64,000 nt of DNA from Myxococcales bacterium (GTDB lineage: Bacteria; Myxococcota; Myxococcia; Myxococcales; JAJYLH01). This document shows, in pieces, positions 6,809 through 26,842 of this stretch (position 1 is the stretch's first letter; every line of letters starts with the position of its first letter). The position numbers were made by a program, and so were the translations under genes. The notes under the pieces are model-generated. The model was not told where the DNA came from. It saw only the letters and a program-made list of their open reading frames with translations, and searched no databases. The stretch covers positions 1 to 64,000 of the forward strand of contig JAJYLH010000023.1 in the NCBI GenBank assembly GCA_021787845.1. The letters run 5' to 3'.

Positions 6809-7925
6809 GTGCGGGTGGCTCTACCGTTGAGCAGGAATGGCAAGGCCCACTCCATGCCGCGCTTGGCCGCGACGCTCTGCAAGCTGAAGAGCCCGACGAC
6901 CGAGGGCGTCGTGAAAAAGCACCTCCACCCCTCCCTGGGAGCGCTGCCGCTGACCGACGTGACGCCGGGTCGCATCGAGGCGATGCTCAACCGCAAAGCC
7001 GAAGCGCTGTCGCCCCGCTCGCAGAACGGCTTGCGCGCGCTCATCCACCGCGTGTTCGAGCTGGCCATCCTCCACGACAAGTGGCACGGCGTGGACCCGG
7101 CCAAGCGCGTGAAGCGCCGCAAGGTGCCGAAACGCCTGCCGACGTACCTCAAGGCCGACGAGGTGCCGCCGTTCCTCGCGATGCTCGACCCCGACTGGCG
7201 ACCGCTGTTCGCGACGGCGGTGTACACGGGCCTTTGGCGCGGCGAGCTGCTCGCGCTCCGGAAGGAAGACGTGGACCTCGCCGATCGGACGATCCAGGTC
7301 GTGCGCTCGACGGGGAACGACACCACCAAGGGCGGGCACGCGGACCTCATCCCGATCGCGGACGGCCTGTTGCCGTACCTCAAAGCGGCGATCGCCGCCT
7401 CACCGTCCGACCTCGTGTTCCCGGGCGAGAAAGGAAAGCCGCGCCCCCGAGACGAAGCTCGACCGCGTACTCCGACGAGCACTGGGCCGCGCGGGCATCG
7501 TGAACGGCTACGTCCACCGCTGCCGGCGGTGCGGGTACAATGAGAGCGCTCCTGACTCAGAGCTGCGCCGCTGCCCCAAGTGCAAGATGAAGCTCTGGCC
7601 GAAAGCGGTGCCGAGGCACGTGCGGTTTCACGACCTCCGACACACGACCGCGACCTTGCTTCTAAAGGCAGGAGTGCCGCTCGCCACCGTGCAGCGGCTG
7701 TTGCGTCACACCTCCCCCGAGATCACGGCCGAGGTCTACGGCCACCTCGACCTCGAAGACATGCGGATCGGGGCCAACCACTTGGCCTTCCCGCACGTCG
7801 GCGAAAGGCCGGCGAGCGACGCTGAATCCGATTCATTTGCTGCGCCGGTGCTGCGCCGCGGTGCGTCATCGAAAAAAGAAGAGCCTGGACCCCTTCGGAA
7901 ACCTCAGGAAATCCAGGCTCTTTCG
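6809..7925 (+). pseudogene. Inactivated tyrosine integrase with zinc-ribbon insertion (relic of an older tRNA-Pro insertion)
   Basis: Two overlapping frames together give most of a phage-type integrase: part of the core-binding domain (LHPSLGALPLTDVTP), then the catalytic domain with HDLRHT, LLRHTS and EVYGHLD. Three defects are visible. The N-terminal arm-binding domain is missing. A run of five C at 7444-7448 shifts the frame; four C would restore PRPETKLDRVL. The first catalytic arginine, expected in TGLRxGE, is Trp in TGLWRGE (TGG at 7234-7236). A CxxC...CxxC ribbon (CRRCGYNE, CPKC) is inserted before the HxxR motif. After a terminator the frame runs into a copy of the tRNA-Pro 3' end at 7927, so this element used the same target as the present island. 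Confidence 0.8.
7881..7923 (+). terminator. Rho-independent terminator after the integrase relic
   Basis: A 9-bp perfect stem, GAGCCTGGA (7881-7889) pairing with TCCAGGCTC (7912-7920), is followed by TTT. It lies between the integrase relic and the tRNA-derived repeat, exactly as the terminator of the intact integrase does at 50215-50241. Confidence 0.7.
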
Positions 7926-7926
7926 A

Positions 7927-7949
7927 TGGTCGGGGAGACAGGATTTGAA
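7927..7949. repeat. Left attachment site (attL), copy of the tRNA-Pro 3' end
   Basis: These 23 bases are identical to 50247-50269 and comprise the CCA end, acceptor strand and part of the T arm of the tRNA. Identity stops abruptly at 7950, where the rest of the tRNA is absent. The five bases before it (TTTCG, then an extra A) also resemble the right-hand flank. Confidence 0.85.
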
Positions 7950-8083
7950 GACGTTCCGCGGGGTTCACCGACAACGCGGCGGCGCACGCCCGAAACGCCA
8001 AACCATCGGTGGCTACAGCGGATTTCGTCATCAGGTCCAGTCCACAGGAGTCCACCCGGATCCCCCCGATTCGACCCAAGTTC

Positions 8084-8103
8084 TGGAGACATGTTGGAGA
8101 CGC
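8084..8103 (+). repeat. Candidate integrase arm-type site, left copy
   Basis: The 20-bp sequence tggagacatgttggagacgc recurs with one mismatch at 50183-50202. Each copy contains two TGGAGAC units spaced 11 bp apart. One copy lies 134 bp inside the left end of the island and the other 44 bp inside the right end, as expected for arm-type sites of a lambda-like integrase. Confidence 0.5.
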
Positions 8104-8397
8104 GGTCGGCCACCTCCGGCCGGCCGCGCCCCCTGTTCTCGGCCGGTTCCGACCGCGTCACCGCGTGGGAGGCGCCGAAATTTCTGGTATCCAGGAGGGC
8201 TGCCGTCCACCTTGAGCCGCCGAGGCGAACCTGGTGACGTGATCGGCAGGCAGGCATACGAGCGCTCTAACGGATGGCAGCCGACCACCACACGACGGTG
8301 TCGTCATGCACGCCGATCCGCGCATGCAAGACGTGAATCGCAAGCTTGACTTTTTCGTCAAGCACCACTAACCTCGCACGCCGGGAAGGAGGTCGCG

Positions 8398-8931
8398 ATG
8401 GTGACCATCAGCTCGCTCGGCTGCGACGGCACGTGCGGGACCTGTCTTTGCGTGCGTGAGAAGAATGAGGGACGGCGTCGCGCGGTGCTGACGCTGGTAC
8501 GTCCCGACCAGGTGCGCCGCCTGTTTCGAAGCAAGTTCCCATGGGAGCCGGTGACGCCCGCGCCCGCGATGGTGGCGTCGTGGCTTCGGCGCTCGTTCGC
8601 GAACGGAACTCTGCGCTACATCCCCGATCCACCCGACTGCGATCGCTGGTGCTCGCCGGCAGCGACGCTCGAACTCGGCGGCGGCGACTGTGATGACCTC
8701 GCCATCCTGGGGGCGTCGATGCTCGTCGCAGCGGGAGAGTTGCCGGCGGTCGTGATCGGGCGCCACTGCGCCGGCCTCACCTGTGCGGGGCACGCGTGGA
8801 TCGAAGGACGTGACGCGCGGGGCGGCTACCTGCTCGAACCGACGACCGGCGAGCTGCACCGCGGGCGCCGACCGTTGGCGTACAAGGCCGATCTGGCGGT
8901 GATCCCGAATCCCCTGAGGAGAGTCGCGTGA
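8398..8931 (+). CDS. Transglutaminase-like cysteine protease
   Basis: The 177-residue protein shows the papain-like transglutaminase core in order: Cys in GGGDCDDLAI (about residue 99), His in CAGHAWIEG (about 125) and an acidic residue in YLLEPTTGE (about 143). This gives a complete catalytic triad, so a protease or amidase activity is likely; the substrate is unknown. A Cys-rich N-terminal stretch (CDGTCGTCLC) may bind metal. The ATG at 8398 has a strong ribosome site (aaggaggt). The stop overlaps the GTG start of the next gene, so it heads a three-gene operon with the DUF6932/XRE pair. It has no signal peptide and should act in the cytoplasm. Confidence 0.65.
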   Translation: MVTISSLGCDGTCGTCLCVREKNEGRRRAVLTLVRPDQVRRLFRSKFPWEPVTPAPAMVASWLRRSFANGTLRYIPDPPDCDRWCSPAATLELGGGDCDDLAILGASMLVAAGELPAVVIGRHCAGLTCAGHAWIEGRDARGGYLLEPTTGELHRGRRPLAYKADLAVIPNPLRRVA

Positions 8932-9488
8932 ACCTACCCGAACACTTCACCGACGCCGGCCTTCTGCCGCCCGGCGACTACCCGTTGACGATCCCGGAGT
9001 TGCGCGAGTCGCTCTTGGTCTACGGCCCGGATGATCGGCCGCCGACGTGGGACTCCGAGTGGCGCGGACACCTCGTCGACAACCTCGCCATCCTCACGGA
9101 CCAACTCTTCGCGACGGGCATCACCGAGATTTTCATCGACGGCTCGTTCGTCGAGGACAAAGACCATCCGAACGACATCGACGGCTACTTCGAGTGCGAC
9201 CTCGTGGCGCTGGCAAGCGGCGAGCTGGAGCGCTCGCTGAATCGGCTCGACCCGCGCAAGTGCTGGACCTGGGAACCACGGTCGCGGCGACCGTACCGTG
9301 GCTACCCCAAGCTCCAACTGCCGATGTGGCACATCTATCGCGTCGAGTTCTACCCGCACGTCGGCCAGCTTTCCGGCATCCGTGACGGTTTCGGAAACGA
9401 GCTCGAGTTCCCGTCCGCGTTTCGGCTGTCGCGCCGCGATGGCGCGCAGCGAGGCATCGTGAAGATCCTCAGGGCGAGGGCCGCATGA
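8928..9488 (+). CDS. DUF6932-type nucleotidyltransferase-fold protein, probable toxin
   Basis: The 186-residue protein carries a nucleotidyltransferase-like core: G-S-F followed by the acidic pair in PNDIDGYF (IDGSFVEDKDHPNDIDGY, about residues 67-84). This matches the DUF6932 family, which often stands next to small helix-turn-helix genes and is considered toxin-like. It uses a GTG start overlapping the preceding stop, and its own stop overlaps the ATG of the XRE gene (ATGA at 9485-9488). The tight coupling to an XRE protein supports a toxin-antitoxin-like module. The target molecule and the nucleotide used are unknown. Confidence 0.55.
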   Translation: MNLPEHFTDAGLLPPGDYPLTIPELRESLLVYGPDDRPPTWDSEWRGHLVDNLAILTDQLFATGITEIFIDGSFVEDKDHPNDIDGYFECDLVALASGELERSLNRLDPRKCWTWEPRSRRPYRGYPKLQLPMWHIYRVEFYPHVGQLSGIRDGFGNELEFPSAFRLSRRDGAQRGIVKILRARAA

Positions 9489-9955
9489 TCCGCAACGAGG
9501 CAGAGTACCAGCAAGCGCGCGAACGGCTGGCCGCCGAAAAGAAGCGCCTGGATGAGCTCGCGGACCGCCTTGCGGCGGCGGGTCTCGGCGCCGACGAGCG
9601 AAAGCGCGTACTCGATCCCGTCGTCTCGTTCCACCAGCAGCTCGAAGAAGAGGTCGCGAGCTACGAGCGTCTGGTGCGTGGCGACTTCGGCGAAGTCGAG
9701 AACCTGCACGGGCTCGGTCAGATGCTCATCGGGCTCCGAATCGCGCTCGGCCTCTCGCAACGGCAACTCGCCGAACGGCTCGGCGTCCACGAGTCGCAGG
9801 TGTCGCGCGACGAGCGCAACGACTACCACGGGGCGACCATCGAACGAGTCAGCCGGCTGCTCGATGCGCTCGGGGTCACGGCGCGCTTGCGCCTGGACTC
9901 GCCCCTGACGCGGGAGCAACCCGAGCGTCGACACCAGCCCAGCGAAAATGGGTAG
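9485..9955 (+). CDS. XRE-family DNA-binding protein with N-terminal coiled coil, probable antitoxin
   Basis: The 156-residue protein begins with a charged coiled coil (about residues 3-75, AAEKKRLDELADRLAAAGL). A helix-turn-helix follows at about 83-137 (GLSQRQLAERLGVHESQVS). This layout is typical of antitoxins that bind both their toxin and the promoter. It overlaps the toxin-like gene by 4 nt and ends the three-gene unit. The stop codon lies inside the first copy of a 24-bp direct repeat (9952-9975). Confidence 0.6.
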   Translation: MIRNEAEYQQARERLAAEKKRLDELADRLAAAGLGADERKRVLDPVVSFHQQLEEEVASYERLVRGDFGEVENLHGLGQMLIGLRIALGLSQRQLAERLGVHESQVSRDERNDYHGATIERVSRLLDALGVTARLRLDSPLTREQPERRHQPSENG

Positions 9956-10276: not shown

Positions 10277-10810
10277 TCACTCGACAAGCCGAAGCGCGGT
10301 CAGCCTCACGGTCATGGCCGCGATCGAGACCTGGAAACGTTCGGCGAGCTCCTTGATGTTCTCCTCGTCGAAGGACTCACCGCCCCAACTCCTATCGACC
10401 TCCGCCCGCACGAAGTCCTCGGGCATCAGGAGCGCTGCCGCAAACTGGTTGGCCTCCACCTCGACCGCATCGTCGCCGGCGCTTGACCTCCGGTCGCGGA
10501 ATCGCACCGGAAGGAACTCCTTGTCGACGTGCATCGGCTGCTTCGGATGCAGCACGAGATGGCCAAGCTCATGCGCGATCGTGAAGCGTTGGCGCACCTT
10601 CGGGTGAAGAGAGTTGACCCCGATGACGGCGACCCCGTTGCCCTGCTGGATGATCATGCCTGAGAGCTCGCCCTCGCCGAACGGCGCGAACCTAATCCGG
10701 GCGCCGGCCACCTTCGCCAGTTTCTCCACCGGGACCGGCGGCACCTTGATCCCCGCTTCCTTGAGAAGGTCTCGTGCGGCTCGTCGTGCGAGCGAGTAGC
10801 GGATCGGCAT
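10277..10810 (-). CDS. ImmA/IrrE-family metallopeptidase
   Basis: The 177-residue protein has the zinc-protease motif HELGHL (about residue 76) and a later acidic region (NQFAAALLMPEDFV), typical of ImmA/IrrE peptidases. These cleave or inactivate a partner XRE repressor in response to DNA damage or infection signals. The ATG at 10810 is supported by GAGGTGA six bases upstream, which lies inside the 3' end of the XRE gene, so the two are translationally coupled. By family precedent (ImmA/ImmR; CapP/CapH controlling CBASS) this is probably the sensor of a two-protein switch. Its position next to the ubiquitin-like operon suggests what it controls. Confidence 0.8.
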   Translation of the reverse strand: MPIRYSLARRAARDLLKEAGIKVPPVPVEKLAKVAGARIRFAPFGEGELSGMIIQQGNGVAVIGVNSLHPKVRQRFTIAHELGHLVLHPKQPMHVDKEFLPVRFRDRRSSAGDDAVEVEANQFAAALLMPEDFVRAEVDRSWGGESFDEENIKELAERFQVSIAAMTVRLTALRLVE

Positions 10811-11159
10811 CGGTCACCTCGTTCCCCTGTTCCGGGAGGGGTTCGATGAGCTCGAGGGCAAAACGGCGCAGCGCGGGATCGTCGATCGGCATCGGCAGAG
10901 CATCAGCGCTGCTGCCCACCGGAGAAACCGAAATCAAGTCGTCGGCCGCAACATCGAGAACGCGCACGATTCTCGCGAGGACGTGGACGTGAAGATGCTG
11001 GCGGCCGGCCTCGATGTTAGTGATCGACGTGCGAGTCAGACCGATCGCCTGCGCTAGCTGGGCCTGGGTCATCTTCCTCGACTTCCGTGCGCCACGGATC
11101 CGTCGGCCAAGCTGTGCGTAGTAGTGCCCCACGGCCTCCATCGCCTGGCAGCGTGTCAT
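10692..11159 (-). CDS. XRE-family repressor partnered with ImmA peptidase
   Basis: The 155-residue protein has a clear helix-turn-helix at about residues 17-72 (RKMTQAQLAQAIGLTRTSI). The last 40 residues overlap the ImmA start in another frame and are low-complexity (PGGETGEGGRRPD), so the functional protein may end near residue 115. XRE and ImmA are fused in some relatives; here they are split, with a good ribosome site for the second gene. The gene faces away from the ubiquitin-like operon across a 134-bp gap. It probably represses its own promoter and may repress the divergent one. Confidence 0.75.
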   Translation of the reverse strand: MTRCQAMEAVGHYYAQLGRRIRGARKSRKMTQAQLAQAIGLTRTSITNIEAGRQHLHVHVLARIVRVLDVAADDLISVSPVGSSADALPMPIDDPALRRFALELIEPLPEQGNEVTDADPLLARTTSRTRPSQGSGDQGAAGPGGETGEGGRRPD

Positions 11160-11225: not shown

Positions 11226-11255
11226 TTGACTTTCATCGAGCGCTCGGACTATATC
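11226..11255 (+). promoter_or_regulatory. Sigma-70-type promoter with palindrome for the ubiquitin-like operon
   Basis: TTGACT (11226-11231) and TATATC (11250-11255) are separated by 18 bp, close to sigma-70 consensus. The spacer holds a perfect 10-bp palindrome, CGAGCGCTCG (11237-11246), a candidate operator. The Ubl start lies about 40 bp downstream. A second dyad, CATC...GATG, lies near 11201-11214. Confidence 0.6.
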
Positions 11256-11293
11256 TTGTCCAGCAGCCCAGCGAGGCTGCGGGAGGACGACGG

Positions 11294-11605
11294 ATGGACA
11301 AGCAGAACGTGAACCCAGGGCAAGCAGGGGTGGGACACTCCCACGGGAATGGGCAGGTCATGGAGAGCATCACCGTGGTGGTCAACGGGACGCCGACGGA
11401 GGTGAAGTACAATCTGAACGAGCCGCTCGGTTCGATTATCGGCCGAGCCCTCGAGCAGACAGACACTGCCCACCAGTCACTGGAAGACTGGTACATCAAG
11501 GACGGGGGCGGGAAGAGCCTCGATCTGAAAGAGAAGATCGGTGACTTTCACTTTCCGAGCGATGTCAAGCTCTTCCTCAACAAGCGTGCCGGTCCGCTCG
11601 GCTAA
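11294..11605 (+). CDS. Ubiquitin-like beta-grasp protein (DUF2604/multiubiquitin type)
   Basis: The 103-residue protein has a flexible N-terminus, then a single ubiquitin-like domain at about 24-98. Strand patterns such as SITVVVNGTPTEVKYN and an acidic/aromatic middle (SLEDWYIKDGGG) fit the DUF2604 type. It ends in GPLG, so a C-terminal glycine is available for adenylation without trimming. In the prokaryotic systems described by Iyer, Burroughs and Aravind, such Ubls sit beside E1, JAB and E2-like or metal-binding genes, as here. It is probably the modifier conjugated by the downstream enzymes. A family member with two Ubl domains (BilA-like) would be longer; this one has only one. Confidence 0.75.
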   Translation: MDKQNVNPGQAGVGHSHGNGQVMESITVVVNGTPTEVKYNLNEPLGSIIGRALEQTDTAHQSLEDWYIKDGGGKSLDLKEKIGDFHFPSDVKLFLNKRAGPLG

Positions 11606-11659
11606 CGGTATCGCCCGACAGTTCCGTTGCCCCAGGTTGCCCCGGACAGTGAGGAACTC

Positions 11660-12271
11660 ATGCAGCGGCGTGACGCCGATGTTCAGGTCGTGGACCGCGA
11701 AGTTTCGGTGGCAAAATTCAACCGGGAAGTGGAGCGCTTCCGCGAACTTGCGCGTGACTACGCGAGGCAGGGCGTTCTCCTCCTGAACGCCGAATTCCCG
11801 CGAACCGAATTTCTCTTCGTCGCGCCCCACTTAACGCCGATCCCGGTGTTGTTCGCGGCACGACTAGACTTCACCAACTATGATGTTTGGCCTCCTTCCG
11901 TGCGCCTGATCCATCCGATCACACGCGACATGTTGAGCGCGAAGGAAGTCACGCACCCGTTTCTACGCCGACTACCCCCTCCCGCGAATTTTCCGCGGGA
12001 CCTTCCCCCGATACAGCCCGCATCCCCCTTTCAATGGGAGAGCCCTGAGTCGTTGCCCTACCTGTGCATGCCCGGCGTTCGCGAGTACCACGATCACTCA
12101 GCACACACAAATGATCCCTGGCTCCTCCATCGCAAGCTCGGGGAGGGTACGCTAGCGTTTATCGTTGACAAGCTGTTGTCATACGGAGTTGTGGGCATAG
12201 CGGCGTATCGCGCGGACCTACAGATCAGGATTTCTGGTTTCCAGCTCGACCCGAATCGGATTCCCGAGTGA
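11660..12271 (+). CDS. CEHH-type putative metal-binding protein, possibly a divergent E2
   Basis: The 203-residue protein belongs to the Ubl operon and, as far as I recall, matches the Metal_CEHH family (PF14455) seen in such loci. A Cys, a Glu and clustered His occur in YLCMPGVREYHDHSAHT (C136, E142, H144, H146, H149). Just before lies a stretch resembling the E2/UBC fold (FTNYDVWPPSVRLIHPITRD, compare YPFxPPxVxFxxP). C136 could therefore be either a metal ligand or a transfer cysteine. The ATG at 11660 with upstream GAGGAA is preferred over the TTG at 11627. No other E2 candidate exists in the operon. The stop overlaps the GTG start of the JAMM gene. Confidence 0.6.
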   Translation: MQRRDADVQVVDREVSVAKFNREVERFRELARDYARQGVLLLNAEFPRTEFLFVAPHLTPIPVLFAARLDFTNYDVWPPSVRLIHPITRDMLSAKEVTHPFLRRLPPPANFPRDLPPIQPASPFQWESPESLPYLCMPGVREYHDHSAHTNDPWLLHRKLGEGTLAFIVDKLLSYGVVGIAAYRADLQIRISGFQLDPNRIPE

Positions 12272-12750
12272 GTACCTTCTCGAATGTTTCACGCATACTC
12301 ATCCCAGAAAGCGTCGTTGGCCGTACCATGGACTTCCTCAGAAAGGTTGGCAGCCACCAGTGTGAAGGGATCGTGCTGTGGGTCGGCACGCTGAACGAGC
12401 CGCAGTTCGTTGTTCAGCACGCAGTAGTGCCACGCCAACGCGCCTTTTCCGCTCATGGTGGTGTCTGTGTAATCGCTGACGATGACTCTCTCGCCGACCT
12501 AAATCAATGGCTATACCAATCTGGGGAACGCCTCATCGCTCAAGTCCACAGCCATCCACTGGACGCCTATCACTCTGAAGCGGACGACGCGAACGCCATC
12601 ATCACCACAGTGGGTGGTCTCTCGATCGTTGTCCCGGATTTCGCGAAGCATGACTTCACTATCGAGAACGTCGCTGCATACCGGCTTGCGAAGAGCGGCT
12701 GGAAGCCGCTAACCTGCGACGACCTCGCGACGCTACTAAGACTGGAGTAA
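12268..12750 (+). CDS. JAB1/MPN (JAMM) metalloprotease, probable deconjugase
   Basis: The 160-residue protein has the JAMM zinc site: E33 in CEGIVLWVG, and H94, H96 and D107 in VHSHPLDAYHSEADD, satisfying HxHx10D. The usual serine is displaced by one position (S103), a minor deviation. JAMM enzymes of prokaryotic Ubl operons remove the Ubl from targets or trim its C-terminus; since this Ubl already ends in Gly, deconjugation is the likelier role. It starts with GTG overlapping the previous stop and ends 5 bp before the E1 gene, so the operon is tightly coupled. Confidence 0.85.
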   Translation: MSTFSNVSRILIPESVVGRTMDFLRKVGSHQCEGIVLWVGTLNEPQFVVQHAVVPRQRAFSAHGGVCVIADDDSLADLNQWLYQSGERLIAQVHSHPLDAYHSEADDANAIITTVGGLSIVVPDFAKHDFTIENVAAYRLAKSGWKPLTCDDLATLLRLE

Positions 12751-12755
12751 CAGAC

Positions 12756-14303
12756 ATGGGACTGGCACCGTTTTTTGACAAGGCCGCGCTCGCTGTCGCC
12801 GGCGTCCTCCCGGATCTCGAGTTCGAGGTTTTCAAGAGCCACCTGGAAGCCGTTACCGTTGCGGTCGCTTTTGACGACACTGCTGCGCAATCCTTTGAGG
12901 GCCAGACAACGCTGGAGCTTGCAATCAACCTGCTCTCGCGCCTCTACCCGACTCTCGCGATCGAAGCCCGAGGCACCAACTCGTCCCTGTTTCGTGACCA
13001 TCTCGTTTCCCTCGCGAAAGCGATCAATCCCAACATCGAGGTTGTGGCCGACATCGATCGCGCGAAGATTGCGCTCGCCGTGGGCACAACTCCTATGTCA
13101 TCCAGGTTCCCGGTACTGTACCTCGGTTCGGAGCGGTGGCTTGCGCGACTATCGAGTGCCACGCCGATGCCGAGTGGATCATCGCGCATCCCGTTTGGTG
13201 CTGCCGCTGCGGCGTGTATTGGAGTCGCCAATGTCTTCCGGGAGGTGTTCCACGATCACCTTCCCAATGCACCGCTGGACAAGGAGGTCGCCTTTTCCAC
13301 CTATATGCCAGACGGCTCGGCCGCAGCCGGGTCCGATCTCGCGATCGGTTCGAATCTCGGGACAGGCGCACTAGTCGGCGTCGGAGCCATAGGAAGTGCG
13401 GTCATATGGACCCTCGCGAGGCTTCCAGGAATGAGTGGAACACTACATCTGATCGATCACGAACCCACGGATTCAACGAACCCTCAGCGTTATGTCCTGT
13501 TAATGGCGGAAGATGGCGCGAAGCCCAAGGTTGAACTTGCGTGTCGAGAGTTCGACAACAAGGGCAGCGGTTTGACCGTGATTCCGCATCAGATGTCGTA
13601 TGCGAAGTACTATTCGAGGTTTGGGAATAGTGATCTTAATCGCGTTCTGTCTGCGCTCGACTCGGCCGACGATCGCATTTTGTTGCAGGCGTCACTCCCT
13701 CGACGTGTTCTCAATGCATGGACACAGGATGTCGATGTCGGCCTGTCAAGGCACGATTTCATCGGCAGCGGAGCCTGCTTGGCGTGTCTCTACTGGCCTA
13801 ACGGAACACAGAAGTCTGACGACGCGATTGTTCTCGAAGGTCTACGTCTTCCGGAAACGCGCTTGCGCGAGGTACGACAGCTCCTTGAACTCGACAGTCC
13901 GCTCGATACTAAGTTTCTCGCGGATGTCGCTGGGGCGCTCGGTATCGCGCCTGCGGAGCTGAGCCAGTTTGAAGGTCACACCATTCGCCATCTTTACAAC
14001 GGGTTTGTTTGCAGTGGTCACCTGATGCGCCTGGCGCATGATAGCCACGGCGCGGACATTCAGGTGCCACTCGCGTTTCAGTCGGCTTTTGCTGGTGTGC
14101 TGCTCGCGGCGGATTTCGTCGTTGATGCTCTGGGGCTGCGCACGGATTCGTTCCCGGACGTTACCCGCGTCGACTTGCTTCGGCCACTTGCGCCAATTCC
14201 CTCTGCGCCCGAAGCGAAGCATCCGTCTGGACTCTGTATATGTCACGACGAGGATTTTATAGCGCGCTACAGAGCAAAGTGGCCTGAATCCGTCGCGTCC
14301 TAA
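12756..14303 (+). CDS. E1-like (ThiF-family) activating enzyme with extra N-terminal domain
   Basis: The 515-residue protein has an active ThiF/E1 adenylation domain at about 200-500: GVGAIG (208-213), D234 in LIDHE, R245 in NPQRY and K257, which bind ATP and the Ubl tail. C341xxC344 and C494xC496 probably form the structural zinc site. The first 190 residues have the rhythm of a second Rossmann-like domain lacking the glycine motif (VLYLGSERW, PFGAAAAACIGVANVFREVF), reminiscent of the inactive half of eukaryotic E1s; this is inference. No separate catalytic-cysteine domain is obvious. It should activate the operon's Ubl. Codon use is less GC-rich than in neighbouring genes, indicating transfer. 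Confidence 0.8.
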   Translation: MGLAPFFDKAALAVAGVLPDLEFEVFKSHLEAVTVAVAFDDTAAQSFEGQTTLELAINLLSRLYPTLAIEARGTNSSLFRDHLVSLAKAINPNIEVVADIDRAKIALAVGTTPMSSRFPVLYLGSERWLARLSSATPMPSGSSRIPFGAAAAACIGVANVFREVFHDHLPNAPLDKEVAFSTYMPDGSAAAGSDLAIGSNLGTGALVGVGAIGSAVIWTLARLPGMSGTLHLIDHEPTDSTNPQRYVLLMAEDGAKPKVELACREFDNKGSGLTVIPHQMSYAKYYSRFGNSDLNRVLSALDSADDRILLQASLPRRVLNAWTQDVDVGLSRHDFIGSGACLACLYWPNGTQKSDDAIVLEGLRLPETRLREVRQLLELDSPLDTKFLADVAGALGIAPAELSQFEGHTIRHLYNGFVCSGHLMRLAHDSHGADIQVPLAFQSAFAGVLLAADFVVDALGLRTDSFPDVTRVDLLRPLAPIPSAPEAKHPSGLCICHDEDFIARYRAKWPESVAS

Positions 14304-15016: not shown

Positions 15017-15423
15017 ACCGAGCCCTGAGACGGTGACAAAGGCCGCTATACCATGCGGCTATCCACGAACCATGAGGCTGCCAAGTAGCACCGCACGGCC
15101 ACTCGACCTGCGCTATCGAGCGGGCGGCAGAGCGGCCAACCGGATGGCGCGCTCATCGACAACTGGCGCACGGCGCACGGCTACTGTCAGGCGAGAACGA
15201 GCACGACGACCCGCGCCGACACTGGAGCATCGACGCCGACCACTCACACCGAGTAGCGGCTGCGCTGCTGAGTGGCCGCACAACTGGCCCCTGGCCCCTC
15301 TGCCCGTGCCAAGCCAGGAGCGGAGCATTGTGCGCCGCCAACGGCGGGTGCTCGCGAAGTACGTGCAACCGGCTTCGAAAAGTGGCAGGATGCGCTCGCG
15401 TAGCACGACCGACGAGGACATGC
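15017..15423 (+). other. Long untranslated leader of the restriction operon
   Basis: About 400 bases lie between the probable promoter and the first start of the restriction operon. Frames are open by GC bias, but no convincing gene is seen. The second copy of the 24-bp direct repeat is at 15253-15276. The leader may be a recombination seam or may carry regulation not recognisable by eye. Confidence 0.4.
15253..15276 (+). repeat. 24-bp module-border direct repeat, copy 2
   Basis: This copy begins gtagcggctgcgctgctgag and differs from 9952-9975 at one position. It lies in the untranslated leader of the restriction operon, 5.3 kb from the first copy and in the same orientation. Confidence 0.6.
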
Positions 15424-18400
15424 ATGATGATCGAGGCGACATCAGATCTCTTCTTCGAACGGCCGATCCTGAACTCGCCCTACATCTATCCGAGGCGTCA
15501 CTGGGAACTGGACGCGACCGGGCAGCCGACGCAGAAGGTCGTCGAGCAGCGGCGGCGGGTGTCGTTCGTCACGCCGATCCCGAAGCCGAAGAAGCGGGGC
15601 AGCGAGAGCCTCGCCCTCGACCTGGGCGGCGACGAAGGCGTCTCCACCCTCGAGCAGGAGTACGCGACCACCGACACGATCAACCGCCTGCGCGAGCTGG
15701 TCACCGCCTGGCGCAACGTCCCGAGCCCGAGCGGCTGGGGCGTGAGCCCGGAGACCGCGCGACTCCTCGAGCACTGGCGGCACCACAAGTTCAGCGACCT
15801 GCGACCGTTCTTCTGCCAGGTCGAAGCGGTCGAGACGGTCATCTGGCTCACCGAGGTCGCGCCGAACGACAAGCGCGGGAAACAGTTCCTCGACCATCTC
15901 GCCCGGGCGAGCGCGCAGTTCAACCCCGGGCTCGTCCGCCTCGCGCTCAAGCTCGCCACCGGCGCCGGCAAGACGACGGTGATGGCGATGCTGATCGCCT
16001 GGCAGACGGTGAACGCGGTCCGACGCCCGCAGAGCTCCCGGTTCACCCGCGGCTTCCTCGTGGTCACGCCGGGCATCACCATCAAGGACCGGCTGCGAGT
16101 GCTCCAGCCGAACGACCCCGACGCCTACTACGCGAAGCGCGAGTTGGTCCCGGTGGAGATGCTGGGTGACCTCGGGAAGGCGAAGATCGTCATCACGAAC
16201 TACCACGCGTTCAAGCTGCGCGAGCGGCTGGACCTTTCGAAAGGTGGCCGGTCGCTGCTGCAAGGGCGAGGCGACGAGCTGTCCACGCTGGAGACCGAAG
16301 GCCAGATGCTCCAGCGGGTCATGCCGGAGCTGTTGAACCTGAAGAACGTCCTCGTCCTGAACGACGAGGCGCACCACTGCTATCGCGAGAAGAGCGCGGA
16401 CCCGGAAGACGAGCCGCTGACCGGCGACGAGCGGAAGGAAGCGGAGGAGAACCAGGAAGCGGCTCGCGTGTGGATCTCCGGGCTCGAGACCGTTCAGCGC
16501 AAGCTCGGGGTGTCGAAGGTCGTCGATCTCTCGGCGACGCCGTTCTTTCTCGCCGGCTCGGGCTATGCCGAGGGGACGCTGTTTCCCTGGACGCTGAGCG
16601 ACTTCTCGCTGATGGACGCCATCGAGTGCGGCATCGTCAAGCTTCCACGCGTGCCCATCGCCGACAACCTCGTCGGGAACCCGATGCCGATGTACCGGGA
16701 GCTGTGGAAGCACATCGGCAAGAAGATGCCGAAGCGGGTGAGGAAGGACGAGCAGCTCGACCCCCGCAGCCTGCCGACTCCGCTCTTCGCGGCGCTCGAC
16801 GCGCTGTACGGCCACTACGAGAAGACGCACCAAGCCTGGCAGGCCGCGGGCATCGCGGTGCCGCCGTGCTTCATCGTCGTCTGCAACAACACGGCGACCT
16901 CGAAGCTGGTCTACGACTACATCTCCGGCTTTCTGTGGAAGGAGCCGAACGGGCAGGAGAAGCCGGTCTTCGGTCGGCTGGAGCTCTTCCGCAACCACGA
17001 CGACAACGGCGACCCGTTGCCGCGACCGCGAACGTTGCTCATCGACAGCCGCCAGCTCGATTCAGGCGAGGGCCTCGACGACCAGTTCCGCAAGGCGGCG
17101 GCGCCGGAGATCGAGCAGTTCAAGCGCGACATCCTCGAGCGCGGCGGAGCTCTCGCGGCGGAGCTGCACGCGGGCAAGGACCTCGACGACGTCACCATCC
17201 TGAGGGAGGTGATGAACACGGTCGGCAAGCGCGGTCGCCTCGGCGAGCAGATTCGCTGCGTCGTCTCGGTGTCGATGTTGACCGAAGGCTGGGATGCGAA
17301 CACGGTCACGCACGTTCTCGGAGTGCGCGCGTTCGGTACCCAGCTCCTGTGCGAACAGGTGATCGGCCGCGCCCTGCGGCGGCAGTCCTACGACCTGAAC
17401 GAGGAGGGCCTGTTCAACGTCGAGTACGCCGACGTGCTGGGCATCCCGTTCGACTTCACCGCGAAGCCGGTGCCGGTCAAGCCGCAGGTGCCGCGGGAGA
17501 CCGTCAACGTCCGCGCGGTCCGGCCGGAGCGCGACGCCCTCGAAATTTGGTTCCCACGCGTAGTCGGCTACCGCGTCGAGCTGCCGGAGGATCGGCTCAC
17601 CGCCAAGTTTACGGAGGACTCGACGCTCGTGCTGACGCCCGAGCTGGTCGGCGCCACCGAGACGCGCAACTCGGGCATCATCGGAGAGCAGGTCGATCTC
17701 ACCCTGGAGCACACCGAGGACGTCCGCTTCTCCGCCGTGCTCTACGACCTGACCGCGCACCTGCTCGTCCACAAGTGGCGGCCGGAGGGCGAGGAGCCGA
17801 ACTATCACCTCTTCGGCCAGCTCAAGCGCATCGCGCACGAGTGGCTGGATCAGTACCTGAAGTGCGAGGGCGGCACCTACCCGGCGCAGCTCCGCTACCG
17901 CGCCCTCGCCGACATGGCCGCTGAGAAGATCACGCACGCCATCGTTCGGGGCACCGTGGGCCAGAGCCAGATTACAGTGGTGACCGACCCGTACAACTCT
18001 ACCGGCTCGACGGCGGAGGTGAACTTCAACACCTCGAAGCCCACCCGCTGGGAGACGGCCGCCGACCGGTGCCACATCAACTGGGTGGTCCTCGACAGCG
18101 ACTGGGAGGCCGAGCTCTGCCGGGTGGTCGAGGCTCATCCGCGGGTGCGCGCCTACGCGAAGAACCACAACCTCGGGTTCGAGGTGCCCTACGTCCTCGG
18201 CGGCGAGCAGCACCAGTACCGGCCGGACTTCATCGTCCTCGTCGACGACGGGCACGGCGAGGACGACCTCTTGCACCTCGTTATCGAGATCAAGGGCTAC
18301 CGCCGCGAGGACGCGAAAGCGAAGAAGGAGACGATGGAGACGAAGTGGATCCCCGGCGTCAACCACGCGGGCAAGTACGGCCGCTGGGCCTTCGCTGAGC

Positions 18401-18498
18401 TCCGCAACGTCTGGGAGATAGAGGCGGACTTCGCGAAGAAGGTCGCGGTGGAGTTCGAGCGGATTCTAGAGCCGTTCGTGGTCGTGTCCGCGGCGTGA
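15424..18498 (+). CDS. Type III-like restriction endonuclease subunit (DEAD-box helicase plus PD-(D/E)XK nuclease)
   Basis: The product is about 1,024 residues from the ATG at 15424 (ATGATGATCGAG). The helicase half shows Walker A as LATGAGKTT, the DEAH-like box as LNDEAHH, motif III as DLSATPF and motif VI as QVIGRALRRQ. The C-terminus has a PD-(D/E)XK nuclease pattern: YRPDFIVLVDD followed by LVIEIKGYR. Together these fit the Res-like subunit of the BPTD_3080-type restriction family. It is the first of five genes with the methyltransferase, DUF488, unknown and UvrD genes. It probably cleaves DNA lacking the methylation made by the next gene; ATP-driven movement is expected. Confidence 0.8.
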   Translation: MMIEATSDLFFERPILNSPYIYPRRHWELDATGQPTQKVVEQRRRVSFVTPIPKPKKRGSESLALDLGGDEGVSTLEQEYATTDTINRLRELVTAWRNVPSPSGWGVSPETARLLEHWRHHKFSDLRPFFCQVEAVETVIWLTEVAPNDKRGKQFLDHLARASAQFNPGLVRLALKLATGAGKTTVMAMLIAWQTVNAVRRPQSSRFTRGFLVVTPGITIKDRLRVLQPNDPDAYYAKRELVPVEMLGDLGKAKIVITNYHAFKLRERLDLSKGGRSLLQGRGDELSTLETEGQMLQRVMPELLNLKNVLVLNDEAHHCYREKSADPEDEPLTGDERKEAEENQEAARVWISGLETVQRKLGVSKVVDLSATPFFLAGSGYAEGTLFPWTLSDFSLMDAIECGIVKLPRVPIADNLVGNPMPMYRELWKHIGKKMPKRVRKDEQLDPRSLPTPLFAALDALYGHYEKTHQAWQAAGIAVPPCFIVVCNNTATSKLVYDYISGFLWKEPNGQEKPVFGRLELFRNHDDNGDPLPRPRTLLIDSRQLDSGEGLDDQFRKAAAPEIEQFKRDILERGGALAAELHAGKDLDDVTILREVMNTVGKRGRLGEQIRCVVSVSMLTEGWDANTVTHVLGVRAFGTQLLCEQVIGRALRRQSYDLNEEGLFNVEYADVLGIPFDFTAKPVPVKPQVPRETVNVRAVRPERDALEIWFPRVVGYRVELPEDRLTAKFTEDSTLVLTPELVGATETRNSGIIGEQVDLTLEHTEDVRFSAVLYDLTAHLLVHKWRPEGEEPNYHLFGQLKRIAHEWLDQYLKCEGGTYPAQLRYRALADMAAEKITHAIVRGTVGQSQITVVTDPYNSTGSTAEVNFNTSKPTRWETAADRCHINWVVLDSDWEAELCRVVEAHPRVRAYAKNHNLGFEVPYVLGGEQHQYRPDFIVLVDDGHGEDDLLHLVIEIKGYRREDAKAKKETMETKWIPGVNHAGKYGRWAFAELRNVWEIEADFAKKVAVEFERILEPFVVVSAA

Positions 18499-18530
18499 GA
18501 GATGTCCGAGCCGCGTGTTAGGCTCGAGAA

Positions 18531-21449
18531 GTGAGTGAGGAGAGCACCGTGCCGAAGCCTACGCTCAAGCCCAGCAAGCTCGCCACTCCCGCCCGCTCGG
18601 GGGGAGCGGGAGGGCCGAAGAGCGTGGAGTCGCTCACGCACGAGGAGGCCAAGCGGCGGAACATCCCGACGGCGGAGTTCGAGGCGGTGATGGTCCCGGC
18701 CGCACAGGTAGCGGCGAAGGTGAGGTACCCGCGCAACACTGACCTCGACCCGCAGCTCGTCTGGCGCGGCAAGGACGAGCAGGACTGGAGCGACCTCGTC
18801 GTCCAAGCGCCGCCGCTCTACATCCAGGAGAAGGTCCACCCGAAGGCGCTTATCAACGAGCTGCTCCGCGAGTCGAAGGAGCGGCAGGCGGAGACCAGCA
18901 ACGCCATCGGCGACCTGTTCGCCGACTTCAACGGCCTGCCCAAGGGCGTCGACAAGACCGAGTTCTATCAGCACGACCAGAACTGGTCGAACCGGATGAT
19001 CCTCGGCGACTCGCTCCAGGTCATGGCCAGCCTCGCCGAACGCGAGGGCCTGCGCGGAAAAGTGCAGTGCATCTACCTGGACCCGCCCTACGGCATCAAG
19101 TTCAACTCTAACTTCCAGTGGAGCACCACTTCCCGCGACGTGAAGGACGGGAACTTAGAGCACATCACCCGGGAGCCCGAGCAGGTGAAGGCTTTCCGAG
19201 ACACCTGGCGCGATGGGATGCACAGCTACCTTACTTACCTGCGCGACCGGCTGACCGTGGCGAGAGATTTGCTGCACGAGAGCGGGTCGATCTTCGTGCA
19301 GATTGGCGAAGAGAACTCGCACCTGATTCGCGCCCTGCTTGACGAGGTCTTCGGCACGGACAACTTTATCGCGCAGATCATATTCGCAAAGACGGCCAGC
19401 GCGACCTCCGAGTACTTGCCTGGCACGTATGACGTTCTTGTCTTCTATGCGCGATCAAAACCGCGCCTGAAGTACAGGCAGCCGTTCACGCTCAAGCAAA
19501 TCGGCGGTATCGGCGGGACGGCATACCGAAAAGCCCGTCGCCCCGATCTAAGTGAGAGAACACTGACGGCGGAAGAGCTGCGTGGAGCGGGCGAGGTGCC
19601 TAGTACGGATCGTATCTTCCGAATCGACAACCTGACGAGCCAGAGCGTCGGACGCGACAAGGGGGAGGGCGCTGCCTCCTGGTTTCCGGTTGAGTTCGAA
19701 GGCGAGGTTTTTCGTCCGTCGGAGAAGGTGCGCTGGAAGACCAACGAAGCTGGGATGGCGCGTCTCCTCAAGGCGGCACGGTTGAGCGCAACGGCAAAGG
19801 GTCTCTACTACGTGAGGTACTTCGACGACTTCCTTGCCTTCCCGGAGGACAACGTCTGGAGTGACACCGGCATCGCTGGGTTCGCGTCGGAAAAACGGTA
19901 CGTCGTAGAAACTTCGGAGAAGGTCGTGCAGCGTTGCCTGTTGATGGCCACCGATCCTGGCGACCTCGTCCTCGATCCCACTTGTGGCTCGGGCACAACC
20001 GCATTTGTCGCGGAGCAATGGGGCCGTCGCTGGATTACCATCGACACATCCCGGGTGGCGCTGGCACTCGCGCGGGCGCGCGTCATGGGTGCGCGGTATC
20101 CGTACTACCTGCTCGCCGACTCGCGTGAGGGGCAGATGAAGGAGGCGGAGCTGACGCGGACAGCGCCGTCGTCGGCTCCGGCGCACGGGAACATCAGGCA
20201 CGGGTTCGTCTACGAACGGGTGCCGCACGTCACGCTCAAGTCCATCGCGAACAACGCGGAGATCGACGTCATCTGGGAGAAGTGGCAGGCGACCCTCGAG
20301 CCGCTTCGGACGTCGTTGAACAAGGCGCTCAAGCAGAAGTGGGAGGAGTGGGAAATCCCTCGCGAGGCGGAGGGCTCGTGGTCAGCGGAGGCAAAGAGGC
20401 TGCACACGGAGTGGTGGGCAGGGCGCGTCGCGCGACAGGTGCAAATCGACGGCTCCATCGCTGCGAAGGCGGAGTTCGAGAAGCTCCACGACAGGCCGTA
20501 CGTGGACAGCAAGAAGGTGCGGGTCGCGGGGCCATTCACGGTTGAGAGCCTCTCGCCGCATCGGGTGCTCGGGGTGGACGAGAACGATGAGCTGATCGAC
20601 CCGGCCGCTCCTCCCTCGACTGCGCTCGGGATGAGCGGAAAGGGCAAGGGCGGGATGAGCGGAGGCGCTGGCGACGACCGGCCAGGGTTCGTCAGGCTCA
20701 TCCTCGAGAACCTGGCAACCGCCGGTGTCCAGCAACGCGACAAGGAGGACCGCATCGCGTTCGAGTCGCTGGAGCCGTGGCCAGGCTCCTACGTGTGCGC
20801 GTCCGGGACCTATCTGGAAGGCAGCAAGACCAAACGGGCGGCGGTCTTCATCGGCCCAGAGTTTGGGACGGTGAGCCGGGCCGACCTCGCGGCGGCGGCG
20901 CGCGAGGCCGGCGAGGCCGGGTTCGACGTGCTCATCGCCTGCGCGTTCGCCTACGAGGCCCACACGACCGAGTTCGAGAAGATGGGCAAGCTCCAGGTGC
21001 TCAAGGCGCGGATGAACGCCGACCTGCACATGGCGAAGGACCTGCGAAACAACGGCAAGGGGAACCTCTTCGTCATCTTCGGCGAGCCGGACATTGCGGT
21101 CGACACGCTGCGCGACGGGAAGCTCCAAGTGACCGTCCACGGCGTCGACGTTTTCGACCCCTCGACCGGCAAGGTCCGCTCCGACGGCATCGAGGGCATC
21201 GCCTGCTGGTTCATCGACACCGACTACAACGAGGAGAGCTTCTTCGTCCGCCACGCCTACTTTCTCGGAGCGAACGACCCGTACGACGCGCTCAAGCGCA
21301 CGCTGAAGACGGAGATCGACCGCGAGGCATGGGAGTCGCTCCACTCGAACGTCTCGCGGCCGTTCGCCAAGCCCAGGTCCGGCCGCATCGCCGTCAAGGT
21401 CATCAATCACCTCGGCGACGAGGTCATGAAGGTGTTTCAGGTGAGGTAG
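18531..21449 (+). CDS. Beta-class DNA methyltransferase (Mod-like)
   Basis: The 972-residue protein starts with GTG at 18531, 32 bp after the nuclease gene. It has the catalytic motif DPPY (residues 184-187) before the SAM-binding motif DPTCGSGTT (from residue 482), which is the beta order of N6-adenine or N4-cytosine methylases. The region between them probably recognises the target. A C-terminal extension of roughly 350 residues goes beyond a typical type III Mod. It should provide self-protection for the operon. The recognition sequence cannot be read from the protein. Confidence 0.8.
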   Translation: MSEESTVPKPTLKPSKLATPARSGGAGGPKSVESLTHEEAKRRNIPTAEFEAVMVPAAQVAAKVRYPRNTDLDPQLVWRGKDEQDWSDLVVQAPPLYIQEKVHPKALINELLRESKERQAETSNAIGDLFADFNGLPKGVDKTEFYQHDQNWSNRMILGDSLQVMASLAEREGLRGKVQCIYLDPPYGIKFNSNFQWSTTSRDVKDGNLEHITREPEQVKAFRDTWRDGMHSYLTYLRDRLTVARDLLHESGSIFVQIGEENSHLIRALLDEVFGTDNFIAQIIFAKTASATSEYLPGTYDVLVFYARSKPRLKYRQPFTLKQIGGIGGTAYRKARRPDLSERTLTAEELRGAGEVPSTDRIFRIDNLTSQSVGRDKGEGAASWFPVEFEGEVFRPSEKVRWKTNEAGMARLLKAARLSATAKGLYYVRYFDDFLAFPEDNVWSDTGIAGFASEKRYVVETSEKVVQRCLLMATDPGDLVLDPTCGSGTTAFVAEQWGRRWITIDTSRVALALARARVMGARYPYYLLADSREGQMKEAELTRTAPSSAPAHGNIRHGFVYERVPHVTLKSIANNAEIDVIWEKWQATLEPLRTSLNKALKQKWEEWEIPREAEGSWSAEAKRLHTEWWAGRVARQVQIDGSIAAKAEFEKLHDRPYVDSKKVRVAGPFTVESLSPHRVLGVDENDELIDPAAPPSTALGMSGKGKGGMSGGAGDDRPGFVRLILENLATAGVQQRDKEDRIAFESLEPWPGSYVCASGTYLEGSKTKRAAVFIGPEFGTVSRADLAAAAREAGEAGFDVLIACAFAYEAHTTEFEKMGKLQVLKARMNADLHMAKDLRNNGKGNLFVIFGEPDIAVDTLRDGKLQVTVHGVDVFDPSTGKVRSDGIEGIACWFIDTDYNEESFFVRHAYFLGANDPYDALKRTLKTEIDREAWESLHSNVSRPFAKPRSGRIAVKVINHLGDEVMKVFQVR

Positions 21450-21530: not shown

Positions 21531-22466
21531 ATGCCGACCGCAGGAGGGTTCAAGCCACCGAGGGCAGGCCCGTTCGTCTTCGCGCGGCAGCGGAAGCTGC
21601 TTGGTCTCTTGGCTGCGCTTGGCGGGCGCGTCGGCAATCTGGACTTCCAGAAGTTGCTCTTCCTGCTGTGCCAGGAGCAGCCTGGGGCGGCTGTTGCGTA
21701 TGAGTTCGTACCGTACAAGTTCGGCGCTTTCTCGTTCACCTCCTACGCCGATCGTCGCAAGCTCGTCGAGCGAGGACTGCTCGCGGACGAAGAGAACATG
21801 TGGGAGTTGACCGACGCAGGCAGGGACATCGTCAGCGGGGAGCGTGACTCGCAACTCGTCGCGTTCGCGCACCGCCATCGCGACATCAGGGGCGATGCAC
21901 TTGTTGCCGAGACCTACCGGCGTTTCCCCTACACCGCGATTCGCAGCGAGATTGCAAAGAGGGTCCTCCGGGGCGACGCGAACTCGCTCCGGCAGATTGA
22001 GATGGCACGACCAACGCCAGGCGGACCGGCGTTGTCGACTCTGGGCTACGAAGGGAAGACGCTGGAGAGCTACCTGAACGAGTTGTTGCGAGCCGCTGTG
22101 ACGGTGCTCGCCGACGTGAGACGTAACCCCGTCAGTCGCAAGTACGGGTTCTCGAAGAAGACGCTCGCGAAGGCTTGCTTGGGAGTCGGAATCCGCTACG
22201 AGCATCTGCCTGAGCTGGGGATCGCGTCGGACAAGCGGCGATTCCTGGAGACGCAGGCGGATTATGACGCGCTGTTCGCGGAGTACGAGCGCGACAGCCT
22301 CCCACAACAGGACGAGCCGCTCACGAGGATTCGGGCCTGGATCGAGGCTGGTGAGCATGTCGCCCTCATGTGCTACGAGCTTTCGCCAGCGCAATGTCAT
22401 CGGCACTGCGTGGCGGAAGCCCTGGAGCAGAAGCTCGGAGCCGGGTTCACGGCCCGTCACCTGTGA
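21531..22466 (+). CDS. DUF488 protein with N-terminal Panacea-like winged-helix domain
   Basis: The 311-residue protein has two parts. Residues about 18-120 (NLDFQKLLFLLCQE...) resemble the SocA/Panacea-like domain seen in antitoxins and mobile-element proteins. Residues about 165-305 are DUF488: LSTLGYEGKTLESYLNEL, DVRRNPVSRKYGFSK and the Cys-rich end CYELSPAQCHRHC. DUF488 proteins recur in defence loci, but their activity is not known to me. The ATG at 21531 has AGAGGAGAAAG upstream. The gene ends 6 bp before the next one, so it belongs to the restriction operon. Confidence 0.65.
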   Translation: MPTAGGFKPPRAGPFVFARQRKLLGLLAALGGRVGNLDFQKLLFLLCQEQPGAAVAYEFVPYKFGAFSFTSYADRRKLVERGLLADEENMWELTDAGRDIVSGERDSQLVAFAHRHRDIRGDALVAETYRRFPYTAIRSEIAKRVLRGDANSLRQIEMARPTPGGPALSTLGYEGKTLESYLNELLRAAVTVLADVRRNPVSRKYGFSKKTLAKACLGVGIRYEHLPELGIASDKRRFLETQADYDALFAEYERDSLPQQDEPLTRIRAWIEAGEHVALMCYELSPAQCHRHCVAEALEQKLGAGFTARHL

Positions 22467-22472
22467 GGCACC

Positions 22473-23294
22473 ATGGAGAAGGAACGAATTCTAATCACGG
22501 TGAAGACCTACCCGACCCTCTCGCGGAAGTACGGCGAAACCGTCTGCACGGCAGGCGTCCGGGCAGATGGTTCATGGGTTCGCATCTACCCCGTCCCGTT
22601 TCGGAGACTCGACGAGACGCAGCAATACAGCAAGTTCGACTGGATCGAGTGTGGGCTCTCTCGTAACGCCTCGGATCCACGACCTGAGACTTTTCGTCCC
22701 GTCGACGAGTCGGAGCTGCAGCCGGTCGCTCACATCGACACGGCCGACAACTGGCGCGAGCGGCGGCGATTGATGCTGCGGAAAGCGCGTGTCTATGACC
22801 GACTGGACGAGATTATCGCAGGGGCGAAGGCGAATCAGGTTTCTCTCGCGGTATTCAAGCCGGCGAAGGTCATCGACTTCGTCTGGGAGCAGGAGACGCG
22901 CGATTGGGACCCGGACAGACTGCGCCAGATGCGCGAAGCGACCAACCAATTCGACCTGTTCGCGGACAACGCTTGGCGGGAGACGTTTCAAGTCATCCCG
23001 AAGTTGCCCTACAGCTTCTCCTACCGGTTCGAGGATGCGGAGGGGAAGCGCAGCGAGTTGCAGGTACTCGACTGGGAGACCGGCGCACTCTACTGGAACT
23101 GCCTCCGGCTGACCAACGGCAACGAGCCGATGGCTCTCGAGAAGGTCCGGCAGAAATACTTCGATTCGTTCCTCAAGACCGACCTGCACTTCTTCCTCGG
23201 GACAACACAGCAATACCACTTCGTCGCACCGAACCCGTGGGTCATCATCGGCGTGTTTCCGGTTCCCCACGAACGCCAGCTCGGACTGCTCTGA
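22473..23294 (+). CDS. Conserved hypothetical protein of the restriction operon
   Basis: The 273-residue protein (MEKERILITVKTYPTLSRKYGETV...) has no membrane segment, signal peptide or motif I recognise. The N-terminal part looks like a small beta barrel (CTAGVRADGSWVRIYPVPFR) and the C-terminal part is mixed (HFFLGTTQQYHFVAPNPW). It is embedded between DUF488 (6 bp) and the UvrD-like gene (17 bp) on one transcript. DUF488 genes often have a neighbour of this size, so the two may form a complex; this is inferred from neighbourhood only. Confidence 0.55.
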   Translation: MEKERILITVKTYPTLSRKYGETVCTAGVRADGSWVRIYPVPFRRLDETQQYSKFDWIECGLSRNASDPRPETFRPVDESELQPVAHIDTADNWRERRRLMLRKARVYDRLDEIIAGAKANQVSLAVFKPAKVIDFVWEQETRDWDPDRLRQMREATNQFDLFADNAWRETFQVIPKLPYSFSYRFEDAEGKRSELQVLDWETGALYWNCLRLTNGNEPMALEKVRQKYFDSFLKTDLHFFLGTTQQYHFVAPNPWVIIGVFPVPHERQLGLL

Positions 23295-23311
23295 CGAGAA
23301 CGAGGCACGAC

Positions 23312-25381: not shown

Positions 25382-25451
25382 CAAACAGGCATCGCCCTGA
25401 CACGCAAGACCTTATGCACAGGTGCTATTCCACCAAGCACCGACGCCGTGG

Positions 25452-25476
25452 TATACTCTTTCTATTAGCCTATTAG
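25452..25476 (+). promoter_or_regulatory. -10 element and tandem CTATTAG repeat before the EcoRI-like pair
   Basis: TATACT (25452-25457) is a good -10 element; its -35 is poor. Two CTATTAG copies (25462-25468 and 25470-25476) lie between it and the ATG at 25486, where a repressor could bind. AT content rises sharply here, marking the border of the inserted restriction pair. Confidence 0.4.
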
Positions 25477-25485
25477 TACACGCAC

Positions 25486-26818: not shown

Positions 26819-26842
26819 CGCGGTTTCTCCAACGGGCACGCG

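What the first reader, a model, noticed from the sequence alone, without database searches (positions are those of the whole stretch)
11226..14303. Four-gene ubiquitin-like conjugation operon without a canonical E2
Seen: a one-domain Ubl ending in Gly, a CEHH-type protein, a JAMM protease (HxHx10D) and an E1 with GxGxxG, in overlapping or near-touching order behind one strong promoter. Known: prokaryotic Ubl operons exist, and the BilABCD systems (Ubl, E2, E1, JAB) protect against phage. Inference: here the E2 slot is taken by the CEHH protein, whose PPSVRLIHP strand pair and C136 suggest a divergent E2 or a metal-dependent transferase. It lies in a defence island, so an antiphage role is likely, possibly with new transfer chemistry.
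Basis: partly seen in the sequence, partly recalled or inferred. Interest (0 to 1): 0.88.

Follow-up and report, generated by a model that had tools for sequence, protein, structure and literature searches.

The report
A BilABCD ubiquitin-like antiphage operon
This is a bacterial version of the ubiquitin-tagging machinery (modifier, E1, E2 and a tag-removing protease) of the already described BilABCD antiphage type; the supposedly mysterious 'CEHH' protein is its known E2 enzyme, so the operon is a normal, if distant, member of the family.

Summary
The four genes are real and intact: Ubl 11294-11605, CEHH protein 11660-12271, JAMM protease 12268-12750, E1 12756-14303. All four match the solved BilABCD proteins: BilA 1e-18, BilB 7e-45, BilC 6e-36, BilD 1.6e-112. 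The 'CEHH protein' is BilB, the E2: 43% identical to the crystallised BilB. Its C136/E142/H144/H149 match the published BilB CEHH motif C138/E144/H146/H151, where the Cys is catalytic (PMC11354881). An AlphaFold2 model matches BilB (TM 0.92 by target length) and then, weakly, eukaryotic E2s. So 'without a canonical E2' is wrong in substance: the slot holds this family's ordinary E2, which databases still label 'putative metal-binding'. The order A-B-C-D holds in all 53 loci fetched from other genomes, and catalytic residues are conserved. The defence-island claim is confirmed; the 'strong promoter' claim is not. One mildly unusual feature is a divergent CapH/CapP-like repressor-protease pair sharing the intergenic region. 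It suggests DNA-damage control of this Bil operon, an arrangement not seen next to any other Bil locus fetched here. New member of a known kind; low interest.

The parts
11294..11605 (+). bilA: single-domain ubiquitin-like modifier, 103 aa, C-terminal Gly with no tail
   Evidence: Pfam DUF2604 1.1e-17; PDB 8tyz_B Ubl(BilA) 1e-18
11660..12271 (+). bilB: E2 (UBC fold) with CEHH motif C136/E142/H144/H149, 203 aa (a TTG start at 11627 is also possible)
   Evidence: Pfam Metal_CEHH 2.2e-49; PDB 8tyz_C E2(BilB) 7e-45; AF2 model pLDDT 80, Foldseek 8tz0_C 1.1e-16, TM 0.92 by target length
12268..12750 (+). bilC: JAB/JAMM deubiquitinase-like protease, 160 aa, E33/H94/H96/S103/D106, GTG start overlapping the bilB stop
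   Evidence: PDB 8tyx_B DUB(BilC) 6e-36; PADLOC BilC 3.9e-15; catalytic residues invariant in 27 distinct sequences
12756..14303 (+). bilD: E1, 515 aa; N-terminal part (Pfam Prok-E2_C region, the inactive adenylation half by alignment to BilD), active ThiF/adenylation domain with GVGAIG at 208, CxxC 341/344, catalytic Cys419
   Evidence: PDB 8tyz_A E1(BilD) 1.6e-112, C419 aligned with Cys417; PADLOC BilD 3.9e-19
11226..11255 (+). possible promoter TTGACT-18-TATATC containing the perfect palindrome CGAGCGCTCG (11237-11246), a candidate repressor site
   Evidence: read by eye; not found by the consensus scan, so weak
   Evidence: PADLOC capH 1.5e-11; Pfam HTH_31 1.2e-13
10277..10810 (-). M78/IrrE-type metallopeptidase, CapP-like (HELGH)
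   Evidence: PADLOC capP 1.2e-36; Pfam Peptidase_M78 5.4e-26; PDB 7t5t CapP 3.1e-5

Best explanation
It is a BilABCD (bacterial ISG15-like) antiphage operon. BilD (E1) adenylates the C-terminal Gly of BilA and takes it onto Cys419. BilA then passes to Cys136 of BilB (E2), with His149 assisting, and BilB conjugates it to a target protein. BilC (JAMM protease) removes it; BilA here already ends in Gly, so trimming a tail appears unnecessary. By analogy with the tested Bil systems the target is probably a phage virion protein (the central tail fibre there), giving poorly infectious progeny. Shown here: family membership and intact catalytic residues in all enzymes. Inferred from the literature on relatives: the chemistry, the target and the antiphage effect. 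Inferred from neighbours: CapH/CapP-like control by DNA damage.
For: Solved-structure matches for all four proteins to one system: 8tyz/8tz0 (E1-E2-Ubl complex) and 8tyx (Ubl-DUB). E2 Cys136, E1 Cys419 and BilC E33 fall on known catalytic positions. The CEHH Cys and both His are invariant in 30 distinct BilB sequences, the Glu in 29; the JAMM residues are invariant in 27 BilC; the E1 Cys is in all 32 BilD sequences without a gap there. Order A-B-C-D in 53 of 53 loci from other genomes. AF2 model of BilB superposes on solved BilB, then weakly on Ube2k, PEX4 and UFC1. Defence-island setting with type III R-M, an EcoRI-like enzyme and PDC-M19 genes. The Bil mechanism is summarised in PMC11354881 and PMC12948488.
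Against: No activity was or could be tested. PADLOC's BilA and BilB models do not hit these proteins even at E 1, and the window's E1 is at most 43% identical to any fetched relative, so the target or phage range may differ. Relatives mostly carry one residue after the Gly (GVAGA), absent here.
Confidence: 0.95

Rival explanations
1. The CEHH protein is not an E2 but a metal-dependent transferase or accessory factor that replaces the E2.
For: Pfam's family name 'Predicted metal binding domain' and plasmid annotations 'putative metal-binding protein'.
Against: 7e-45 match and 43% identity to crystallised BilB, an E2 with the same CEHH positions; E2-like model. The published reading is that Glu and the first His hydrogen-bond to nearby amide and carbonyl groups in a structural role (PMC11354881).
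Confidence: 0.02
2. A Bub (bacterial ubiquitination-like) or 6A-type CBASS-related conjugation operon rather than Bil.
For: The E1 domain weakly resembles E1-E2 CBASS proteins and 6A-MBL cap2_3; CapW or CapH/CapP regulators are common next to Bub operons (PMC13373217).
Against: Best matches of all four proteins are to Bil by a wide margin; no cyclase or MBL gene was seen next to it.
Confidence: 0.03

Closest known systems
BilABCD system of PDB 8tyx/8tyy/8tyz/8tz0 (bacterial ISG15-like; an Ensifer system by my own recollection, organism not checked here)
   Same: Same four proteins, one-domain BilA, same CEHH E2, same E1 Cys, same JAMM residues
   Different: About 43% identity in BilB; BilA has no residue after the terminal Gly, whereas most relatives have one; a divergent CapH/CapP-like pair shares the promoter region; a different, non-rhizobial host
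Mesorhizobium, Rhizobium and Sinorhizobium Bil operons, also on large plasmids
   Same: All fetched genome loci have A-B-C-D; these are the nearest sequences, about 39-48% in BilB
   Different: No adjacent HTH plus M78 peptidase found by similarity and motif search
CapH/CapP controller modules of CBASS, Pycsar, DISARM and Bub operons
   Same: HTH repressor plus M78/IrrE peptidase beside an immune operon (PMC13373217)
   Different: Here next to a Bil operon; cleavage of the HTH by the peptidase is not tested

Membership tests
BilABCD | Four genes Ubl, E2, JAB, E1 in this order | tested here: met
BilABCD | Each protein homologous to a characterised Bil protein | tested here: met
   BilA 1e-18, BilB 7e-45, BilC 6e-36, BilD 1.6e-112
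BilABCD | E2 with catalytic Cys and CEHH motif, UBC fold | tested here: met
   C136/E142/H144/H149 aligned to BilB; AF2 and Foldseek
BilABCD | E1 with adenylation motif and catalytic Cys | tested here: met
   GVGAIG 208, C419 aligned with Cys417
BilABCD | JAMM protease with E and HxH...S..D | tested here: met
   E33, H94, H96, S103, D106
BilABCD | Ubl offers a C-terminal Gly for activation | tested here: met
   ...RAGPLG*
BilABCD | Conjugates BilA to phage proteins and reduces infectivity | not testable with these tools
   needs experiment
CapH/CapP controller | HTH repressor and M78/IrrE peptidase genes together beside an immune operon | tested here: met
   capH 1.5e-11, capP 1.2e-36, divergent from bilA
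CapH/CapP controller | ssDNA-activated cleavage of the repressor that induces the operon | not testable with these tools
   needs experiment

The most novel reading that the evidence does not exclude
This Bil operon is switched on by DNA damage through the divergent CapH/CapP-like pair, a regulator pairing not found beside any of the other Bil loci fetched here; the Bil controllers reported in the one paper read are CapK+CapS (five cases, PMC13373217).
Probability: 0.6. Interest if true: 0.25.

Novelty: new member of a known kind. Interest (0 to 1): 0.14.

Why it matters
It shows that the Pfam and RefSeq label 'Metal_CEHH / putative metal-binding protein' hides an established E2, so readers and pipelines can mistake ordinary Bil operons for E2-less systems. 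It adds a divergent Bil operon outside rhizobia and Bacteroidota, and a testable case of DNA-damage control of Bil.

Tried and rejected
New transfer chemistry or an E2-less pathway: rejected by the BilB match. HPN-like motif in 'RLIHP': rejected, the His is not conserved. Strong sigma-70 promoter: not supported. Family libraries alone would not have settled it: PADLOC identified only BilC and BilD here, NCBIfam gave no hit for A, B or C, and Pfam still calls B metal-binding. The primary papers on Bil are not in hand: Chambers 2024 is not held, and the DOI I tried for Hor 2024 was wrong (the reference list gives 10.1038/s41586-024-07616-5, which I did not look up), so their content is taken from reviews. 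A literature search for the bare word CEHH gave only unrelated papers. The E1 tree leaves the window unresolved outside the main rhizobial group, with long branches; not used further.

Full report
Observation. Motifs as described: C136/E142/H144/H149 in B, E33 plus HSHPLDAYHSEAD in C, GVGAIG and C419 in D. Pfam calls them DUF2604, Metal_CEHH, Prok-JAB and Prok-E2_C plus ThiF. The operon's G+C (56-59%) is below the window's 66%, consistent with an acquired island.

Identity. Against all solved structures, the best match of each protein belongs to one published system: Ubl(BilA) 8tyz_B 1e-18, E2(BilB) 8tyz_C 7e-45, DUB(BilC) 8tyx_B 6e-36, E1(BilD) 8tyz_A 1.6e-112. BilB aligns end to end at 43% identity, with CMPGVREYHDHSAH against CMAGVREYHDNPAH. 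A review (PMC11354881) states that BilB is an E2 with Cys138, Glu144, His146 and His151 as the 'CEHH motif', Cys138 and His151 catalytic and the other two structural. The spacing in the window (0, +6, +8, +13) is identical. The E1 Cys417 of that review falls on C419 here, and the BilC residue mutated in 8tyx (E33) falls on E33 here. An AlphaFold2 model on 23 BilB sequences (pLDDT 80, pTM 0.76) has solved BilB as its top three matches (E 1e-16 to 4e-14, TM 0.92-0.93 by target length), followed at much weaker E by Ube2k, PEX4 and UFC1. It follows that there is no missing E2 and no sign of new chemistry.

Conservation. A scan of 84,980 prokaryote genomes with two conserved BilB peptides gave 53 loci, mostly Mesorhizobium, Rhizobium and Sinorhizobium, a few Bacteroidota (Hymenobacter, Cyclobacteriaceae, Sediminibacterium), one Rubellimicrobium and one Dormiibacterota. 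Because of the patterns used this is a lower bound and biased to close relatives. All 53 have A-B-C-D in that order. In 30 distinct BilB sequences the Cys and both His of CEHH are invariant and the Glu is in 29; in 27 BilC all JAMM residues are invariant; in BilD the catalytic Cys is present in all 32 sequences without a gap there. The His of 'RLIHP' is Asp in 27 of 30. Twelve plasmids (nine conjugative) carry relatives and no phage record does. In the host's own phylum 3 of 195 genomes, the window's own included, have the family. One of the others (L057) has bilC on the opposite strand after bilD, and the second (L058) has B-C-D with bilA not found.

Mechanism. From homology: E1 adenylation of BilA's Gly, E1 C419 thioester, transfer to BilB C136, conjugation to a target, removal by BilC. 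In tested systems the Ubl is attached to the phage central tail fibre, which disrupts assembly and lowers infectivity (PMC12948488). The review also says BilC trims BilA to expose the Gly; here, as in a minority of relatives, BilA ends in Gly with no tail, so trimming should be unnecessary. None of these steps was tested here.

Surroundings. Defence island confirmed: an integrase broken into two frames (6809-8237), a resolvase-type recombinase (26843-28432), a type III R-M system (15328-21449), PDC-M19A/B (21531-23294), a UvrD-type helicase (22904-25381), an EcoRI-like endonuclease (26120-26818), ArdC-N, and replication-relaxation and primase genes. Directly upstream and divergent lie an XRE repressor and an M78 peptidase that match CapH (1.5e-11) and CapP (1.2e-36). 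CapP cleaves CapH on ssDNA binding and thereby induces the neighbouring immune operon; CapW or CapH/CapP occur beside 219 of 544 Bub operons, and CapK/CapS beside five Bil operons (PMC13373217). By similarity and HExxH search none of the other fetched Bil loci has such a pair adjacent; L043 has one about 4.5 kb away and L058 an M78 gene nearby. Several loci are cut short upstream and most are close Mesorhizobium relatives, so the count of independent cases is small. A perfect 10-bp palindrome (CGAGCGCTCG, 11237-11246) lies between the candidate -35 and -10, a possible operator; about 0.1 such palindromes are expected by chance in 134 bp (my estimate).

Verdict. Observation confirmed; interpretation right about the system type and wrong about its novelty. 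A new, fairly divergent member of BilABCD. Interest 0.14.

Noticed in passing
10277-11159 (-): CapH-like HTH and CapP-like M78 peptidase divergent from bilA; likely DNA-damage switch for the Bil operon. The two ORFs as listed overlap by 119 bp, so one boundary may differ.
   Followed up: partly
6809-8237 (+): Tyrosine integrase split over two frames (Phage_integrase positions 3-107 and 125-169), with a zinc-ribbon-like insert; a frameshift or a pseudogene.
   Followed up: no
11294-12271 (+): PADLOC-DB 2.0.0 misses BilA and BilB here, and plasmid annotations call BilB 'putative metal-binding protein'; automated calls would report an incomplete system.
   Followed up: yes
L057:4900-8110: Second Bil-type locus in the same order of bacteria (G115) with A-B-D in line and bilC inverted behind bilD; BilA ends GGGG.
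   Followed up: partly
21531-28432: DUF488/PDC-M19A and PDC-M19B pair, UvrD-type helicase, partial N6-methylase, EcoRI-like endonuclease and resolvase-type recombinase: rest of the defence island.
   Followed up: partly
8398-9955 (+): Three tightly packed small genes: transglutaminase-like, DUF6932 (PADLOC PDC-M63A weak match) and an XRE-type HTH protein; looks like a further small module.
   Followed up: no
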